From: Halichondria panicea
Taxonomy: Eukaryota > Porifera > Demospongiae > Suberitida > Halichondriidae
Direction of reading: 5' to 3'
Assembly (NCBI RefSeq): GCF_963675165.1
Contig: NC_087383.1
Coordinates: 6,719,139 to 6,783,138 of the forward strand
DNA: 64,000 bases
Shown: positions 22,296 through 32,978 of the stretch, piece after piece
Numbering within the stretch: the first letter of the stretch is position 1
Layout of the letters: each line of letters opens with the position of its first letter
The notes under the pieces: generated by a model
Told to the model about the DNA's origin: nothing
The model's input: the letters and a program-made list of their open reading frames with translations, nothing else
Databases searched by the model: none
Made by a program: the position numbers and the translations under genes

Positions 22296-23191
22296 TAGCC
22301 AAGGGAGACTTTGAACCTTGACCTTGCCTTCCTTATCACCTTGCCTTTTCATATGCGCATGCGCATAAGCAACCTTGCATGCCTTCAATAACAAGCTAGC
22401 TAGCTAGAGATGACTGAGCAGGATGAATTGTTTGGAGCATAGAATCAATACTTTATTGATGTCAGCAGATTCCTAGAGAACACAGAACATCATCGTGGAA
22501 TAGCGTATCGAGAATTTTGTGACTATGTTTTGCCAAGACTAGAAGTTTGTCTGAGTACTTGCATGCAACTATCTGATCAAATGCTGCAAGGGGGTTCTGA
22601 AGTTGGAGAAGAAGATGAGCTAGTAATTAATGAGTTTCAATCGAATTTGGCTCATCTACTAGAGTGCCTGAGAAGTGTACACAGACAGTGGGTGCAATAT
22701 GAAGAGATAATAGAAACCAGCAAATTCCAGTATCAAGCTGCTAGAAGAATCTTTGGAAGAGGAAGATCTAAGTTTGAAATTGAAAAGGAACAACTAGTGT
22801 ACCTATCATCACTAAATTTTAGCTGGACTGAAATTGCGGCCCTGCTTGGTGTATCTTGTATGACCATATATAGGTAAGTTTTTGACTGATAAACATAAGT
22901 AATCTTGTGTATACAGAAGACGAGTTGAGTTTGAATTGCTGGATGACTCTGCAACAACTTTATCAGATCATGAGCTCAACAGGATTGTGAAGGAAATCCA
23001 TTCAGAATCCCCGACGTTAGGAGTCATTATGGTATGTGGAAGGCTGAGAAGAATGGGATATAGTGTGTCAAGGGATAGAGTCCGATGTTCTCTAAGGTCA
23101 TCTGACCCATTAAGTGCAGCTTCAAGATTGATGGGTGGTCTTAGTCGACGACAGCCTTACTCAGTTGCTGGCCCAAACCTCTGGCATATTG

Positions 23192-24929: not shown

Positions 24930-25215
24930 ATGCCTCGGTGCGCATGCATGCGCAAGCGAGGTATATACGTTTGTGTGTCTATGTGTGTGTAGACTGCAAT
25001 CAAGTGCAAGTAAGAGTTTCTATAGGCTTCTATAGTCATGTTTACTTGGATTTTAATTCGTGGATTTGCAAAATAATGCTTCGTTCTCGAGTTACGCCTA
25101 GTTTTGCTTACTTGGAATGCCATTGCAGTCTTTTCAGAAGCCGGGCACGTATAGCCAAACTTATTTACCAAGTGTTATGAGGTGCCGTTTGTGTCAAAAC
25201 TATGTAAAAGTGAGA

Positions 25216-26020
25216 CATATATATATGTCCATGGGTATTTATAAATGTCCATGGGTATTTATATATATCCACGGGTATTTATAAATACCCGTAGACATTT
25301 ATAAATGTCCACAGGTATTTATAAATACCCGTAGACATTTATATATGTCCATGGGTATTTATAAATGTCCATGGGTATATATAAATGTCCATGGGTATAT
25401 ATAAATGTCCATGGGTATATATAAATGTCCATGGGTATTTATAAATGTCCATGGGTATTTATTATATGTCCATGGGTAATTTATAAATGTCCATGTGTAT
25501 TTATAAATGTCAATGGGTATTTATGGGTATATATAAATGTCCATGGGTATTTATTATATGTCCATGGGTATTTATAAATGTCCATAGGTATTTATTATAT
25601 GTCCATGGGTATTTATAAATGTCCATGGGTATATATAAATGTCCATGGGTATTTATAAATGTCCATGGGTATTTATTATATGTCCATGGGTAATTTATAA
25701 ATGTCCATGTGTATTTATAAATGTCAATGGGTATTTATGGGTATATATAAATGTCCATGGGTATTTATTATATGTCCATGGGTATTTATAAATGTCCATA
25801 GGTATTTATTATATGTCCATGGGTATTTATAAATGTCCATGGGTATATATAAATGTCCATGGGTATTTATTATATGTCCATGGGTATTTATAAATGTCCA
25901 TGTGTATTTATAAATGTCAATGGGTATTTATAAATGTCCATGTGTATTTATAAATGTCCATGGGTATTTATAAATGTCCATGGGTATATATAAATGTCCA
26001 TGGGTATTTATAAATGTCAG
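25216..26020. repeat. Left subterminal tandem array, 20-bp units
   Basis: About 40 copies of a roughly 20-bp unit (TATTTATAAATGTCCATGGG, variants TATATATAAATG and TTTATTATATG). CCATGG and TTTATAAA make each unit partly palindromic, and some units are inverted near 25270-25350. A block of about 219 bp is duplicated (around 25441 and 25659). Confidence 0.95.
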
Positions 26021-26110
26021 TGGAGGATGTGTGCTTTTCAGGGTGTGGTTTTGTTACATTACAAGTGATAGTCACATGACTGTTACATAACCTGCCACAT
26101 GGTCACAACA

Positions 26111-27900
26111 ATGGCTGAAGGCTCAATAAGTGTGAATGTTGGAGTGTTGTCTAGTGCCCTGGCTGTTGCAATTCAGCAAGCAGCTAGCAGTGGACAGTCA
26201 CAGTCACCTCAAGTCCCTGCCAATCAAAGTCAGCACACTTCCAGTCAAAGGTACAAATGTAGTGTACAGACCCATGAAAGTTTCAGATATAGGCAGCATT
26301 AATTTGATCATGCATCAGCCCACAATAATTTAGCATTACTAAGGAAGAAAGTGCACACAGGTATTACTTTATGTTGTGCATGCTGCATGCATGATAACAC
26401 TTATTTTTCTGTCTAGGTCTTACGATGTTTACAGAAGCCTTATCGATTTGACACAAGAGTCTTCCGACGATATGTCAGGTAGCGGCACTGACGATGAGCT
26501 TCCCAAAGTGGAGTTTTCTCTTGCACCTCAACGTGATTTGGAAGAAAGGTATTGACTAAATTTGAAACATGACCGTGTTTCATTTATTATCTTCTAGGGG
26601 GGTTCGCAAAACAAATCCAATTGTATCCAAGCACGTAGTTCTCCAACATCAGTTGAGAGTACTAACTGGTGCAGCTGATGAGGAAGATTGACAACGGATA
26701 TGTGTACGCCGTAGTCACATTGTACAAGATGCATTGTGTGCTTTCGCCAAACCTTCCTTTCACACCTCAAAGATGTTGAAGGTGACCTTCATTGGGGAGA
26801 TTTCAGTGGATGATGGAGGTCCCAGGCGAGAGCTGTTCAGTGTACTCATGAGGGAGCTCTTTGACAAGAGTGGCCTTTTCACAGGCTGGCCTGAGAATGC
26901 TGTACCAGTGCACAATGTTCATGCCTTAGCTGAAAATAAGTTCTACATCACTGGAAAGATCGTTGCAACCAGCTTAGTACAAGGTGGGCCACCCCCAGTG
27001 TGCTTCAGCCGTGCTGTTGCAGACTATATTGTGTTTGACGAAGTGAGGAGTTCTCCAGACCTTCAAGATATACCTGACTTCGAAGTTCGGCAGAATCTTG
27101 AGAAGGTTGGGTGTGTACGTGTGTGTGCCTGTGCCTGTTTTTACTACATTTCTACAGATGCTAACTATTGTGAATGTTGAGGAACTCAGGTCATTCACTG
27201 ATGAGCACCTTGAGCTTCGCTTTGAGTGTGGCTACCAGAAACCAACCAGCTCGCTGCAGATCTCAGATAAGGAGGAGATCCTGAAGACAGTGTGGCTCCA
27301 TTTTGTGTATTTCCACCCTCTTGCTGAGCTGCAACAGCTAAGGAAGGGATTGAGGGAGACCCTCCAGCTGGAAATTTTGATGGTCCAATACCCTGATGAC
27401 ATGCATTCGTTCCTTGCCACCTCAATTGCGTTTGATGTTGATGGTGGTGACCTCTTAGACTGGTTTGTGGCTAGCTACTCGGAAAGAGGAAGCAACAAAA
27501 GAAAGTCAGAGGAGGCTGTTTACCTCATGTGGAGCAACTATGTCATGGATTGCTCTGGTCAGTTACACACATTTATACAGCACTGTATATGTACATACTA
27601 AGCATTTATCGTTTGTCAGTTACACATTACAGCATTTATCCCAACACAGATGGTGATGAATCAGGTGTGTCGATTGGTGACATTCTACAATTTATCTCTG
27701 GCTCTAGGAGGCTTCCAGCAGCTGGGTTTCCTTGTATCCCTAGTGTCCACTTCACAAATGAAAAGATTCTCCCTAAGACTTCAACATGTGACGTAAGCAT
27801 CACCTTTCCAAGATCTTTTAACGAGCTGCCATATGAGATGTTTAAGAAAAAAATGGATATGAGCGTTTTGGATTCTGCTGGTTTTGGTGGTGGTCCGTAG
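26111..27900 (+). pseudogene. HECT-type E3 ubiquitin ligase carried by the transposon (one in-frame stop)
   Basis: Exons are 26111-26250, 26417-26548, 26598-27105, 27158-27557 and 27650-27900, all in phase. The N-terminus (MAEGSISVNVGVLSSALAV) is encoded inside the inverted repeat. The HECT N-lobe starts at KVTFIGEISVDDGGPRRELF. The C-lobe has DILQFISGSRRLPAAGF, then KILPKTSTCDVSITFP with the catalytic Cys, and the C-terminal end LDSAGFGGGP. This resembles the HECT half of G2E3-like ligases, which pass ubiquitin from the catalytic Cys to substrates. A single TGA at 26689-26691 breaks the frame just before the HECT domain. The rest is open and splice sites are good, so loss is recent or the stop is a variant. 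It could protect the element or modify host factors (inference). Confidence 0.85.
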
Positions 27901-28049
27901 TTAGTATATAACAGTTTCAACTTTGACATTTTAGCTGCTGTATTACTTCATTGTGTTCATTCATTCATTCATCATCACATTATTCATTCCTTTTTCATTT
28001 ATTTATTCATTCTTTCATTCATTCTTATCATAATTATAATAATTGAATA

Positions 28050-29515
28050 TTACATCCAAATACATTGTGAGCAAGTAGCATTAAGATGCTGTCCTGTAGT
28101 ATGAAGTACGTCGACAAAGAGTCCTCTACCATTATCTTCTGCTTCTTCAAGGGGATTTATAGTTTGGAAACTTTGTTTTAAAATTGAGCATGGTATAAAC
28201 TTAATTCTTGGCACTGATACACGTTCTCCTTCAACATCAGAAGTGTCCACATTAGCTGTAGTACCAAGTTCTTGCTCGCTTGTTTGCAGCATACCTTCAA
28301 AAAAAAGTTGGTATGGAGTTCGATTGCCTTCAGTAGATAAAGGATGATGATTCCAACTATCTACGAAACCTGAAATACATTTGTTTATTCTTGGCAGGAA
28401 TATCAGATGCAAACAGTAAAGATCCACTTCATTTAAGGGGTCAAGAAGTCCATCACTTTCCAAAGATCGGAAGATTTGGGAAAACACGGAACCAACACAT
28501 CTATGAACGTCACGCCAGAGTCTCTCAATTCTTTCATTGTGCACAGAACTCCCGGTGATTACACAACTGTAATCATTATTGTGTGCAGCAATCATGTACC
28601 GCCATACCTCCACATTTTCTCCACCGTGATCTGATCTCACATGGTTAGGGACACCATAGTGCCTGATACTGTCAGTGAAGAGCTGGAGAACAGTTTCTGA
28701 ACGATTGTTGTCGGTGCATGCCACATAAATGATAGTGCGGGAGAAGCCGTCAATTGAACCATGGATCACAAAACGCCACCTTATAAGTTTATGATGGCCA
28801 TCAATGTGCCACACATAATTTGGGTGAGGGGCACTGTACACACGGCGTCTAACAACAGTACAGCGACGCGCAATGACATTTTCGTGATCCGTTCGATGAA
28901 TGGAATCCCTGACAGCTTGCCGAGGAACTTTTAATCCCCTTGCTCTTAAGTGGCCGCAGACAAGTCGTTCCCCATCATTCGGGTGATCTCTTTTTATACC
29001 ACTGATCACATCATCTAGCTCATTATCATCCAACATCGACCCATCCTGTGAGGATCTTCCATTTTCTTCTAATCGTCTGTACAAAGTTGCTCTTGATATT
29101 CCCAAGATAGACGCAATTTTATTCCATTTGTAATGAAGTGATCGTATTTCCAGTATTTCGTCAATGGTAACAGTGGACCTCGGCCTTCCTGGACGATCAG
29201 ACCTGTATATACACATAGACAGTTATGTATCAGAATTATTGTTTATACAGATATAGCACAGTGGAACCTCGTCTTATGTGACAAGGGACTTGCCCGTGTA
29301 TAATTATGGAAACTGAAGTACGTGGTGTTTACCATAGGGTAATGGTAATACCGCCGGTATGGTAAACTTTCTGCTAGAGTCTGTCACTGACCTGTCACTA
29401 ATGGGACTCTGGTTGGCACCACTTGAGGTAACTGTAACTGACCACTGCTAACTGCTTGCTGAATTGAAACAGCCAGGGCACTAGACAACACTCCAACATT
29501 CACACCTTCAGCCAT
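28050..29515 (-). CDS. DD(34)E integrase-type transposase of the HECT element
   Basis: The main exon 29212-28050 is fully open. Its order is: PGRPRS linker; helix-turn-helix WNKIASILGISRATLYRRL; then the rve-type integrase core, with VWHIDGHHKLIRW (first Asp), VRSDHGGENVEVW (second Asp) and SVHNERIERLWRDVHR (Glu). The last two are separated by 34 residues, close to the D,D-35-E spacing of retroviral-type integrases. WNHHPLSTEGNRTPYQLFFEG follows. The first exon is 29515-29392 (MAEGVNVGVLSSALAVSI), homologous to the first exon of the HECT gene. With the obvious donor, the phase to exon 2 is off by one, so the true junction may differ or an indel exists. The enzyme probably cuts the element ends. 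A decayed paralogue surrounds the element. Confidence 0.87.
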
Positions 29516-29605
29516 TCTTGTGGACCATGTGGCAGGTTATCATGTGACTACCACTTGTAATGTAACAAAACCACACCCTGAAAAGCACACATCCTCCACT
29601 GACAT

Positions 29606-30190
29606 TTATAAATACCCATTGACATTTATAAATACCCATTGACATTTATAAATACCCATTGACATATATAAATACCCATGGACATATATAAATGTCTATG
29701 GGTATTTATAAATACCTGTGGACATTTATAAATGTCTACGGGTATTTATAAATACCCATGGACATTTATAAATACCCATTGACATTTATAAATACACATG
29801 GACATATATAAATACCCATGGACATATAATAAATACCCATGGACATTTATAAATACCCATGGACATTTATAAATACCCATGGACATTTATATATACCCAT
29901 GGACATTTATAAATACCCATGGACATATATAAATACCCATGGACATTTATACATACCCATGGACATTTATAAATACCCATGGACATATATAAATACCCAT
30001 GGACATTTATATATACCCATGGACATTTATAAATACCCATGGACATATATAAATACCCATGGACATATATAAATGTTTATGGGTATTTATAAATACCTGT
30101 GGACATTTATAAATGTCTACGGGTATTTATAAATACCTGTGGATATATATAAATATCCATGGACATTTATAAATACCCATGGACATATAT
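29606..30190. repeat. Right subterminal tandem array, inverted relative to the left
   Basis: The same 20-bp unit in the opposite orientation (AAATACCCATGGACATTTAT), about 29 copies, shorter than the left array. The open frame of repeated MDIYKYPW at 29839 is a product of the repeat. Confidence 0.95.
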
Positions 30191-30195
30191 ATATG

Positions 30196-30417
30196 CATAG
30201 GCGTAGGAACCAGGGGGGCAAGGGGGGCAGTTGCCCCCCTCAGCCTAATATTTTGCTTTTTCGCCCCCCTTAGCCAGCACTGCTCTCTAATTGAAAAAAT
30301 ATTGTGAGCATGTGGCAAAAATAACAATGTATCAGGCCAAGAATAAATTGTGTCTCAGTGATATTGGTATAACATATTGTTTGCCCCCCTTAGGTAAAAC
30401 ATCTTCCTACCCCTATG
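30196..30417. mobile_element. Small element with CATAGGCGTAG ends and 5-bp duplication
   Basis: The 222-bp element has imperfect inverted ends (CATAGGCGTAGGAA / CATAGGGGTAGGAA) and ATATG duplicated at 30191-30195 and 30418-30422. It is rich in C and G runs (GGGGGGCAAGGGGGGCA). It resembles the element at 61224-61647. Confidence 0.75.
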
Positions 30418-31552
30418 ATATGTCTCACTTTTACATAGTTTTGACACAAACGGCACCTCATAAAGTGTTGCTACTCTACTTAGTAGTTAGCTCTGCACTA
30501 GAATGCTAGCTATTGGTAGCTGCATTACAAGAGTGAGAAGATAGCTGCAAGGCTCTGCTGATGCAGCCATTAATTTTAGACTTGAACTTTTGGCATCAAT
30601 TGTTTTATTGTTTAACAATAATCATGGTCAATCATTACCCACTCTAAGTTTGCATGCAGCAAAATCAAAAATGTTCATCATGTGTATAAAAGCTATTAGT
30701 AGCTTTATGTTATGTAGCTTTGGCATCTCCATCGAGGTATCAGCACCTGCGGTGCTTTCATTATAGTATTGACTAATTTCATTACATTAAAATTAATTAT
30801 GGTTGAATTATCTTAATTGTTTCAGATTCACATCATAAGCTTATTAGATGGAGAATCGTCACTCATGGCTGCATTGACAGCTACAGTAGGCTGGTGACTT
30901 TCTTGAAGTGTTGTGGCAATAATAAATCGCCAACAGTGTACGAATTATTTTTGTGTGCAGTTCAAAAGCATCAGCTGCCATCTCGTATATAAGAATGGAC
31001 CAAGGTGGGGAAAATGTATTGGTCGCACGTCACATGTTAGAAAAAAGAGGACATGATAAGAGAGGTGTGATTGTAGGAGCCTCGGTCCATAATCAACGCA
31101 TAGAGCGACTATATGGAGGGACATGCACCGCTGTGACTATTCTCTTTTACAAGCTGTTTTACTTTATGGAACAAGTGGATCTATTAGACTGTTTGAATGA
31201 GACGCATCTGTATTCCCTTCATTATAATGTGTTCATTCCACGTATTAATCAGGCACTTGCACTGTTCATTGGTGGATGGAACCATCACTCAATCCGAACT
31301 GCACACCGTAAGTCTCCACACCAGTTGTTTACAACAGAGGCACTACTTTTGCAGCACTCCGGACTCGCAGCTTTGGATTTTTTTGAGAATGTGGAGGAAG
31401 AATATGGAATTGATATGGAAGGCCCCATCCCGTCTCAGGGACGTTCTATAGTTGTGCCTGAGGTGCCAATAAGGCTAAATTCAGAGAATTTTGCTCTCCT
31501 ACAGCAAGCTGTTAATCCGTTAGCACCTTCTGATGAGTTTGGCATTAATTGA

Positions 31553-32978
31553 TTTGTATGAACAAGTTTTGCAGTTTATGTCAACAATTACGGTATAAAA
31601 CATGACCATGATGACTCTCATAATTTGATGTTATTCTTACATAATTATTATTTTGATGCATGCCATTGTGATGCTCAGTAAACAAAGCTCATAATTATCA
31701 ACACAAAAAATGATTAATGAGAGTATGCATGCAGTACAATAGCTATAAGCCAAAACAATACTACCTATAATTATAATTAAAGGGAGTTATTGTTAGAATT
31801 GACGATAATCATATAATTATTATGAACATCTATGAAGGTGATTGATTGAAATGAAGGATGACACTGAGAGTAAGCTAAGTATAGCACAGCAAAAACACAA
31901 TTATGTTATATGGGATGCATCATCGTATTTTAGTGTTAAAATGACAGAAATTTATGTCATTTCTACATTAAAATAATTTCAAATGATGCATTTTATTTGA
32001 GATGTTTTATGTTATTATAACATAATTATCTGTTTTTACTGTGTATATAGCCAAAACAATTATGACGTGATCAGCACAAATAATTAAACTTAAGAAGTTC
32101 AAGGTCCATTCAGGGAATAGTAACATAATGATAATGACGATACTTAATTAAGAAGTTCATGGTCCATTCAGAAAGAAGTTACAAACAGTTCATTACCCAA
32201 CAAAGGTCATTGTCGTTGAGGATTGCCATCCACTTTCCGTGAAATTCACTATAATTGGCATACGAGATTGGTAGCTTTAGCAAAGCATCACATGTGTTGT
32301 GCACACAGGGCCTCCTGGCCCACTCAGACAATTGAATTGTACGATGATACTGCTGACAGACAATACACTGCTCCCAGTTGTGAAGTGAAGAAATCGCTGA
32401 AGCAGATTAGTCGACATATTGCCAATCAATATCTACAAGATAGCCACCAACACGCTCCTCAGCAGGATTCACCAACACGGGCAGTTTGATAATGCCTAAA
32501 ACTTTCTTTGGTGAGACTGTATAAGCATCCTATAAATGGAGGACATGCATGCACACCTTCAACAGATTGCACTGATAATAGGCACTTTTATAACATTATT
32601 AATTTTTATGAGCTAGAATAATAGGAGGTTTTGAAATACAGGTCAATATACGAGTCATAATTATAGTATAAACATATTTTGTAGGCCCGGAAGTACTGCA
32701 TGGTGGGTAATTATCTCCTATATATTGTAGAATTAATAGATAGAGGTCATATGCATAAATTATGGCCATTATTAGTTTGTGTTACTTGTGCAACGACATG
32801 GGGCTTATATGCCGTGTTTTGGAGGCAATTAATATAGGCTGTTAACTTGAGCATAAAAGAATAGCTAGCATGCATATAAATATATACTATAAGTACAGTT
32901 CAATATACATGTACCAAAAATGAATTTTTTACGAGCATCGTATATAGTGGGTATACATAAACTTCGCAGGATGACTGT
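31553..32978. other. Noncoding
   Basis: AT-rich. A hairpin of about 157 bp lies at 31886-32042 (CAGCAAAAACA ... TTTTTACTG arms with AATTATGTTATA). AAGAAGTTCA(A/T)GGTCCATTCAG appears twice (32091, 32151). A frame at 32223-32489 has no known family. Confidence 0.45.

What the first reader, a model, noticed from the sequence alone, without database searches (positions are those of the whole stretch)
25176..30462. A DNA transposon that carries a HECT ubiquitin ligase beside a retroviral-type integrase
Seen: exact inverted ends, a 6-bp target duplication (AAGTGT), roughly 1-kb inverted repeats, one intact DD(34)E integrase and one HECT gene with all expected motifs, converging in the centre. Known: integrase-type cut-and-paste elements exist, but with shorter duplications as far as I know, and a ligase partner is not a standard component. 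Inference: the ligase may stabilise the integrase, degrade host restriction factors, or control copy number.
Basis: partly seen in the sequence, partly recalled or inferred. Interest (0 to 1): 0.88.

Follow-up and report, generated by a model that had tools for sequence, protein, structure and literature searches.

The report
Jumping gene with built-in ubiquitin ligase
This is a cut-and-paste DNA transposon in a sponge genome that carries, next to its own integrase-like transposase, a gene for a HECT-type ubiquitin ligase, and many related transposons in the same genome carry one too, which suggests the ligase helps the element to move or to withstand its host.

Summary
The element at 25176-30462 is real: identical 40-bp ends (TATGAGG..CCTCATA), a 6-bp target duplication, ~1-kb inverted arms, a DD34E integrase-fold transposase and a HECT gene that converge. 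By ends, duplication and protein plan it fits the known IS3EU/GingerRoot superfamily, which is known for 6-bp duplications; it is not retroviral or Ginger. The host is Halichondria panicea or a near relative. The HECT gene is no one-off capture: six other family copies have both genes (a partial seventh keeps part of HECT), and 41 of 68 Pfam HECT loci in the genome lie within 6 kb of a transposase of this kind, 40 convergent (chance 0.8). The pair is found in families of 40-60% protein identity, HECT is constrained between families, and the pair recurs in one contig from another sponge (Iophon). Other transposase loci show no HECT. The window copy is damaged: HECT has an in-frame stop and lacks two exons; transposase exon 1 is out of frame. 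A copy 42 kb upstream is open in both genes. Both proteins of this family start with the same peptide, coded by first exons in the inverted arms. What the ligase does is inferred. No held paper couples HECT with IS3EU; Repbase was not searchable.

The parts
25170..25175 (.). left copy of the 6-bp target site duplication AAGTGT
30463..30468 (.). right copy of the target site duplication AAGTGT
25176..26231 (+). left inverted arm; outer 40 bp identical to the right end; holds a dense array of ~20-bp near-palindromic units (38 found with up to 2 mismatches) and, at its inner end, the start of HECT exon 1
29405..30462 (-). right inverted arm (28 units), with most of transposase exon 1 at its inner end; carries a nested 222-bp insert
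26111..26250 (+). HECT gene exon 1 (MAEGSISVNVGVLSSALAVAIQQAASSGQ...), N-terminal peptide shared with the transposase
26417..26548 (+). HECT gene, second exon of the short form (exon 4 of the long form in L012)
26598..27105 (+). HECT N-lobe exon (DDGGPRRE); in-frame TGA at 26689-26691, not in the five copies compared
27158..27557 (+). HECT middle exon
27650..27900 (+). HECT C-lobe exon with the catalytic-type cysteine (TSTC), ends in TAG
28050..29202 (-). transposase exon 2: HTH and DD34E core (D139 codon 28800-28802, D196 codon 28629-28631, E231 codon 28524-28526), stop
29392..29515 (-). transposase exon 1 (MAEGVNVGVLSSALAVSIQQAVSSGQ...); 10 bp shorter than in five compared copies, out of frame with exon 2
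30196..30417 (.). nested 222-bp insert with its own inverted ends and a 5-bp duplication ATATG; absent from 6 of 6 other copies whose arm was printed

Best explanation
A two-gene cut-and-paste DNA transposon of the IS3EU/GingerRoot kind in a Halichondria sponge. Shown: ends, 6-bp duplications in 9 places, a DD34E integrase-fold transposase with an HTH, a spliced HECT E3-ligase gene that lies beside the transposase in many diverged families and is constrained between families, and, in this family, a shared N-terminal peptide of the two proteins made by first exons in the inverted arms. Inferred: the transposase binds the arrays of short near-palindromic repeats in the arms, cuts the element out and inserts it as retroviral integrase and related transposases join DNA; each arm acts as a promoter so that both genes are switched on together; the ligase acts at the element, brought there by the transposase through the common N-terminal peptide, and ubiquitinates a host silencing or repair protein, or the spent transposase complex. 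Identity of the element and standing partnership: about 0.9. Action of the ligase at the transposition complex: about 0.35, with anti-silencing as the most likely outcome.
Against: Most transposase loci have no HECT hit within 6 kb: only 44 of 95 and 41 of 113 have one. Many of the rest are fragments, but L045 has an open 450-aa transposase and no HECT was found 4.7 kb to one side and 5.4 kb to the other; L037 likewise lacks one in 5.4 kb downstream and 1.5 kb upstream. In L010 the genes are head to head, and its HECT identity rests on a home-made profile, chiefly the N-lobe. Among recent copies of one family the transposase ratio is 0.2-1.1 on few changes and one HECT pair gives 0.45, so constraint is seen only between families. 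The shared peptide was seen on both genes only in this family; in two others it was found on HECT (L063, L062) but not beside the transposase (L035, L062). Several relatives used are damaged: stops or frame changes in the HECT of L041, L062 and L063. No expression, binding or ligase data exist here. The window copy is broken in both genes.
Confidence: 0.8

Rival explanations
1. Self-control: the ligase marks the element's own transposase for destruction, or strips it from DNA after insertion, so that copy number stays tolerable.
For: Both proteins begin with the same peptide, which could pair them; the two first exons and the sequence before them are alike in both arms, as expected for a coupled activator and brake.
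Against: A gene that only lowers the element's own transposition should be lost easily by selfish copies, yet HECT is constrained between families. No substrate data.
Confidence: 0.25
2. Anti-host: the ligase removes a host silencing or restriction protein anywhere in the nucleus, without contact with the transposase.
For: Fungal IS3EU elements carry other accessory enzymes, an alpha-kinase opposite to the transposase and a TET/JBP dioxygenase proposed to counter silencing (PMC12730594, passages). HECT is constrained about as strongly as the transposase.
Against: Does not explain the shared N-terminal exon. No target is known.
Confidence: 0.3
3. Passenger: a host HECT gene was captured once long ago and rides along without a role in transposition.
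For: Most transposase loci have no HECT hit nearby, two with open transposase frames among them. Three of five copies compared have the short HECT without two exons.
Against: Constraint between families and kept cysteine; parallel divergence; recurrence in another sponge.
Confidence: 0.1
4. A retrovirus-like or Ginger element rather than IS3EU.
For: The integrase fold matches retroviral cores best.
Against: 6-bp duplications and TA..TA ends; besides the HECT and transposase frames the element has no frame over 97 aa by the ORF list (no reverse-transcriptase search was run); no zinc, OTU or Ulp1 family among the Pfam matches of the transposase.
Confidence: 0.03

Closest known systems
[quoted passage not shown] PMC10045372, passages)
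   Same: TA..TA ends, 6-bp duplications, integrase-like DDE transposase without the HHCC zinc domain
   Different: The words HECT and ubiquitin do not occur in that paper; membership by tree could not be tested as Repbase is not held
Fungal IS3EU elements with alpha-kinase and TET/JBP genes (PMC12730594, passages)
   Same: Same superfamily with a second enzyme gene opposite to the transposase
   Different: Kinase and dioxygenase instead of a ubiquitin ligase; HECT and ubiquitin do not occur in that paper
Ginger1 transposons with OTU or Ulp1 domains (PMC2836005, passages)
   Same: Integrase-type DNA transposon tied to the ubiquitin/SUMO pathway
   Different: Protease domains in the transposase itself that remove ubiquitin or SUMO; 4-bp duplications; gypsy-type integrase. 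Here a separate gene for adding ubiquitin
G2E3-like HECT ligases
   Same: NCBI names the Halichondria protein P0121 G2/M phase-specific E3 ligase-like; distant relatives in Amphimedon (P0122) and clownfish (P0124)
   Different: No PHD finger found in the transposon protein (PHD fingers of G2E3 are recalled); whether those relatives lie in transposons could not be seen

Membership tests
IS3EU/GingerRoot | TA..TA termini | tested here: met
   TATGAGG...CCTCATA, identical 40-bp ends
IS3EU/GingerRoot | 6-bp target site duplication | tested here: met
   AAGTGT here; 9 of 17 distinct places with both motif ends, 3 without, 5 where the motif is not the end
IS3EU/GingerRoot | integrase-like DDE core without HHCC zinc domain | tested here: met
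   rva_4, rve and HTH_7 found, no zinc family among the 11 listed at E up to 1; DDE invariant; integrase fold
IS3EU/GingerRoot | transposase clusters with Repbase IS3EU or GingerRoot proteins | not testable with these tools
   Repbase is not held; the GingerRoot paper is not in the library
Ginger1 | 4-bp CCGG/CCGT duplication | tested here: not met
   6-bp duplications; definition from PMC2836005
Ginger1 | OTU or Ulp1 domain in the transposase | tested here: not met
   Pfam scan of the 388-aa frame, E up to 1
Ginger2/TDD | 4- or 5-bp duplication | tested here: not met
   definition
IS481EU | duplications of about 4, 15 or 25 bp | tested here: not met
   definition
HECT E3 ligase | HECT domain over the curated Pfam cut-off | tested here: met
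   PF00632 51.9 bits (cut-off 23.9) on the spliced L012 protein
HECT E3 ligase | C-lobe catalytic cysteine | tested here: met
   cysteine aligned in 8 of 8 families
HECT E3 ligase | ubiquitin transfer activity | not testable with these tools
   needs purified protein
G2E3 | N-terminal PHD fingers (recalled) | tested here: not met
   only HECT found in the 687-aa protein, E up to 1

The most novel reading that the evidence does not exclude
IS3EU elements of animals are ancestrally two-component machines: the transposase and a HECT ligase assemble through a common N-terminal peptide coded by a first exon placed in the inverted arms, so that ubiquitination happens at the transposon ends themselves; and some G2E3-like HECT genes of animals, perhaps vertebrate G2E3 itself, are such ligases left behind or domesticated.
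Probability: 0.25. Interest if true: 0.82.

Novelty: new variant of a known kind. Interest (0 to 1): 0.63.

Why it matters
Ubiquitin- or SUMO-removing domains are known in integrase-type transposons (Ginger1), and a kinase and a dioxygenase in fungal IS3EU; a gene for adding ubiquitin, kept across many families, points to ubiquitin signalling as a need or weapon of these elements and gives a testable pair of proteins. It also warns that G2E3-like HECT genes in animal annotations can be transposon genes: in this genome 41 of 68 Pfam HECT loci lie within 6 kb of such a transposase.

Tried and rejected
Retroviral origin: rejected by ends, duplication length and the absence of further long frames. 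Universal partnership: rejected, because L045 and L037 gave no HECT. L038 also gave none, but its transposase groups closely with L040, which has one, so it reads as a derivative. Convergence as a fixed rule: rejected by L010, whose HECT-like gene is divergent. That gene reaches no Pfam HECT match exon by exon; a home-made profile gives 42.2 bits, E 5e-12 among 2002 sequences, best shuffled decoy 9.5 bits, while a C-lobe profile gives only 4.8 bits. Fold of the unnamed N-terminal domain of the long HECT: the model was poor (pLDDT 44) and was not searched. Viral contigs: 16 pattern matches, no relative. Ends of the L048 family: none found by words of 14 bases or by TA plus a 6-bp duplication. 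HECT relatives in the protein database: only 3 and 2 hits, but just the ~8000 candidates sharing most words were scored, so absence elsewhere is not shown. The coelacanth paper listed does not treat HECT in its main text. Scripts ended in errors; only the rows that one search printed before its error are used. Searches failed for a wrong frame and a wrong search term and were repeated in corrected form. The dN/dS figures come from stretches that tblastn could align, which favours conserved parts; one search also dropped columns with under 25% local identity. The 22-27% ratios compare two families through several near-identical copies and are one comparison, not many.
Full report
What is there. 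The element runs from 25176 to 30462 between two copies of AAGTGT. Its outer 40 bp are identical at both ends, and inverted arms of about 1.05 kb follow, 86% alike over the longest aligned stretch. Most of each arm is an array of ~20-bp near-palindromic units, 38 on the left and 28 on the right by a loose count. The family L010 has arms that look built in the same way from quite different units (by eye). Such arrays are likely transposase binding sites (inference).

The HECT gene. On the plus strand, five exons give a HECT protein; copies L012 and L013 have a long form of seven exons and 687 aa, and the six introns of L012 are GT-AG. The HECT domain is clear in the long protein (51.9 bits, E 1.1e-13, residues 384-684), and a two-sequence profile finds HUWE1, TOM1, AREL1, RSP5 and UBE3A among solved structures.

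The window copy is damaged. Its HECT frame has a TGA at 26689-26691 where L009, L011, L012, L013 and L030 are open, and it lacks two exons of the long form, as do L009 and L011. Its transposase exon 1 is 10 bp shorter than in L009, L011, L012, L014 and L030, out of frame with exon 2. Among the other copies, L012 reads open in both genes, L009 too (short HECT, transposase three codons shorter), while L011, L013, L014 and the C17 copy each have at least one break. L012 ends 42 kb before the window copy starts, outside the window. Window and L012 are 99.65% identical over the short HECT reading frame, and three transposase frames of the family are identical, so the family moved recently (inference).

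A shared start. HECT exon 1 and transposase exon 1 lie at the inner ends of the inverted arms and code for MAEG..VNVGVLSSALAV.IQQA.SSGQ. A similar peptide starts HECT in L063 and L062. Of 124 held proteins (transposase and HECT hits), only one transposase, P0049, matched the motif in its first 110 residues; many may lack exon 1. The motif was not found in the searched transposase flanks of L035 or L062.

Copies and co-occurrence. TATGAGGTGCC occurs 79 times in the 131-Mb genome against 6 for the control. Of the places fetched, 17 distinct ones have the motif at both ends: 9 with a 6-bp duplication, 3 without, and 5 where the motif is internal to a longer palindrome. Six other copies of the family carry both genes (L009, L011, L012, L013, L014/L015, C17), and a partial seventh on C16 has a transposase in two pieces and at least the last HECT exon. 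With the HECT protein as query, 104 hits form 54 loci; 46 lie within 6 kb of one of 95 transposase loci, 44 convergent, against 0.5 expected. With Pfam alone, 120 HECT hits form 68 loci; 41 lie within 6 kb of one of 113 rva_4 loci (150 of 152 rows were listed), 40 of them convergent with gaps of 381-2188 bp, against 0.8 expected. The other 27 lie at least 45 kb away; most are probably host genes, which I did not annotate, but one (C12:4330670) also matched the transposon HECT query and so looks like a transposon HECT without its transposase. Seen from the other side, 44 of 95 and 41 of 113 transposase loci have a HECT hit nearby; hit lists are lower bounds. One of the two non-convergent cases is explained by a nested element on C6.

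Depth and selection. Between the window family and L063, pN is 0.34 and pS 0.91 for HECT over 535 codons; for the transposase against L035 it is 0.32 and 0.81 over 350 codons; neutral simulations gave ratios of 0.86-1.25. Between families L044 and L048, where dS is finite, the last HECT exon gives dN/dS 0.22-0.27. Among recent copies within a family the changes are few and the transposase ratio is 0.2-1.1, so nothing can be said there. Eight families keep the C-lobe cysteine, and their HECT C-lobe and transposase distances correlate (Mantel r 0.48, p 0.004). In a tree of 28 transposases, HECT-bearing families lie on both sides of the midpoint root, and L037 and L045, without a detected HECT, branch apart. 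This fits an old partnership with losses, but the root is for drawing only, and some of the HECT genes compared (L041, L062, L063) have stops or frame changes.

Beyond this genome. NCBI names protein P0121, 99% identical over 57% of the query, as a G2/M phase-specific E3 ligase-like protein of Halichondria panicea, which names the host or a near relative. A scan of prokaryote genomes found four transposase relatives in bins of sponge-associated bacteria, probably sponge DNA. One of four, L060 (Iophon sample), has a HECT (28.5 bits, cut-off 23.9), convergent, about 190 bp away; in L058, L059 and L061, with short flanks, no HECT was found. Distant HECT relatives occur in Amphimedon (P0122, 34% over 53%) and clownfish (P0124, 27% over 52%); their neighbourhoods could not be seen.

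How it likely works. Shown: anatomy, mobility by duplications, constraint between families and co-occurrence. From established knowledge: a DDE integrase-fold enzyme cuts and joins DNA ends, and a HECT enzyme passes ubiquitin from its cysteine to a substrate. Inferred: the arms bind transposase and drive both genes; the common N-terminal peptide brings the ligase to the transposase; the substrate is a host silencing or repair protein, or the spent transposase complex. The first is favoured because the ligase is kept by selection.

What is known. IS3EU/GingerRoot has TA..TA ends, usually 6-bp duplications and no HHCC domain (PMC10045372, passages). Fungal IS3EU with TET/JBP genes carry them between the transposase and an alpha-kinase of opposite orientation (PMC12730594, passages). 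Ginger1 transposases carry OTU or Ulp1 domains, and their authors proposed that the ubiquitin pathway is involved in transposition (PMC2836005, passages). A survey of animal HECT genes places G2E3 late, after the chordate/echinoderm split (PMC2837046, passages). Searches for HECT or G2E3 with transposon terms (listings seen, of which the papers named above were opened) and for IS3EU with HECT (zero papers) gave no report of this pairing that I saw. Repbase entries and most subscription papers were not searchable, so it may be noted there.

Noticed in passing
window 30196-30417: A 222-bp insert with inverted ends CATAGGSGTAGGAA and a 5-bp duplication ATATG sits in the right arm; six of six other copies whose arm was printed lack it.
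   Followed up: partly
window 30825-31558: A second, broken rva_4 transposase of another family starts about 360 bp after the element; five more copies that match in the same two pieces occur at C7:6052887, C7:6377958, C7:6407409, C7:6837886 and C20:19254.
   Followed up: no
window 22761-22874: A small HTH fragment of a related transposase.
   Followed up: no
L020-L024: Five elements of 429-447 bp hold TATGAGGTGCC inside longer palindromic ends GAGGTGCGTTTT..AAAACGCACCTC.
   Followed up: no
G000:C6:6881921-6891776: One HECT/transposase element appears to have another convergent HECT/transposase pair inserted inside it.
   Followed up: partly
L058-L061: Contigs filed as sponge-symbiont bacteria (LWTN01, QPIL01) encode eukaryote-type transposons and are probably sponge DNA.
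   Followed up: partly
L012:1967-2444: The long HECT form has an unnamed N-terminal domain (FPRGKSR..FPFVFLQ), found also in L010, L062 and L063 and perhaps L060, with no Pfam match in the pieces scanned.
   Followed up: partly
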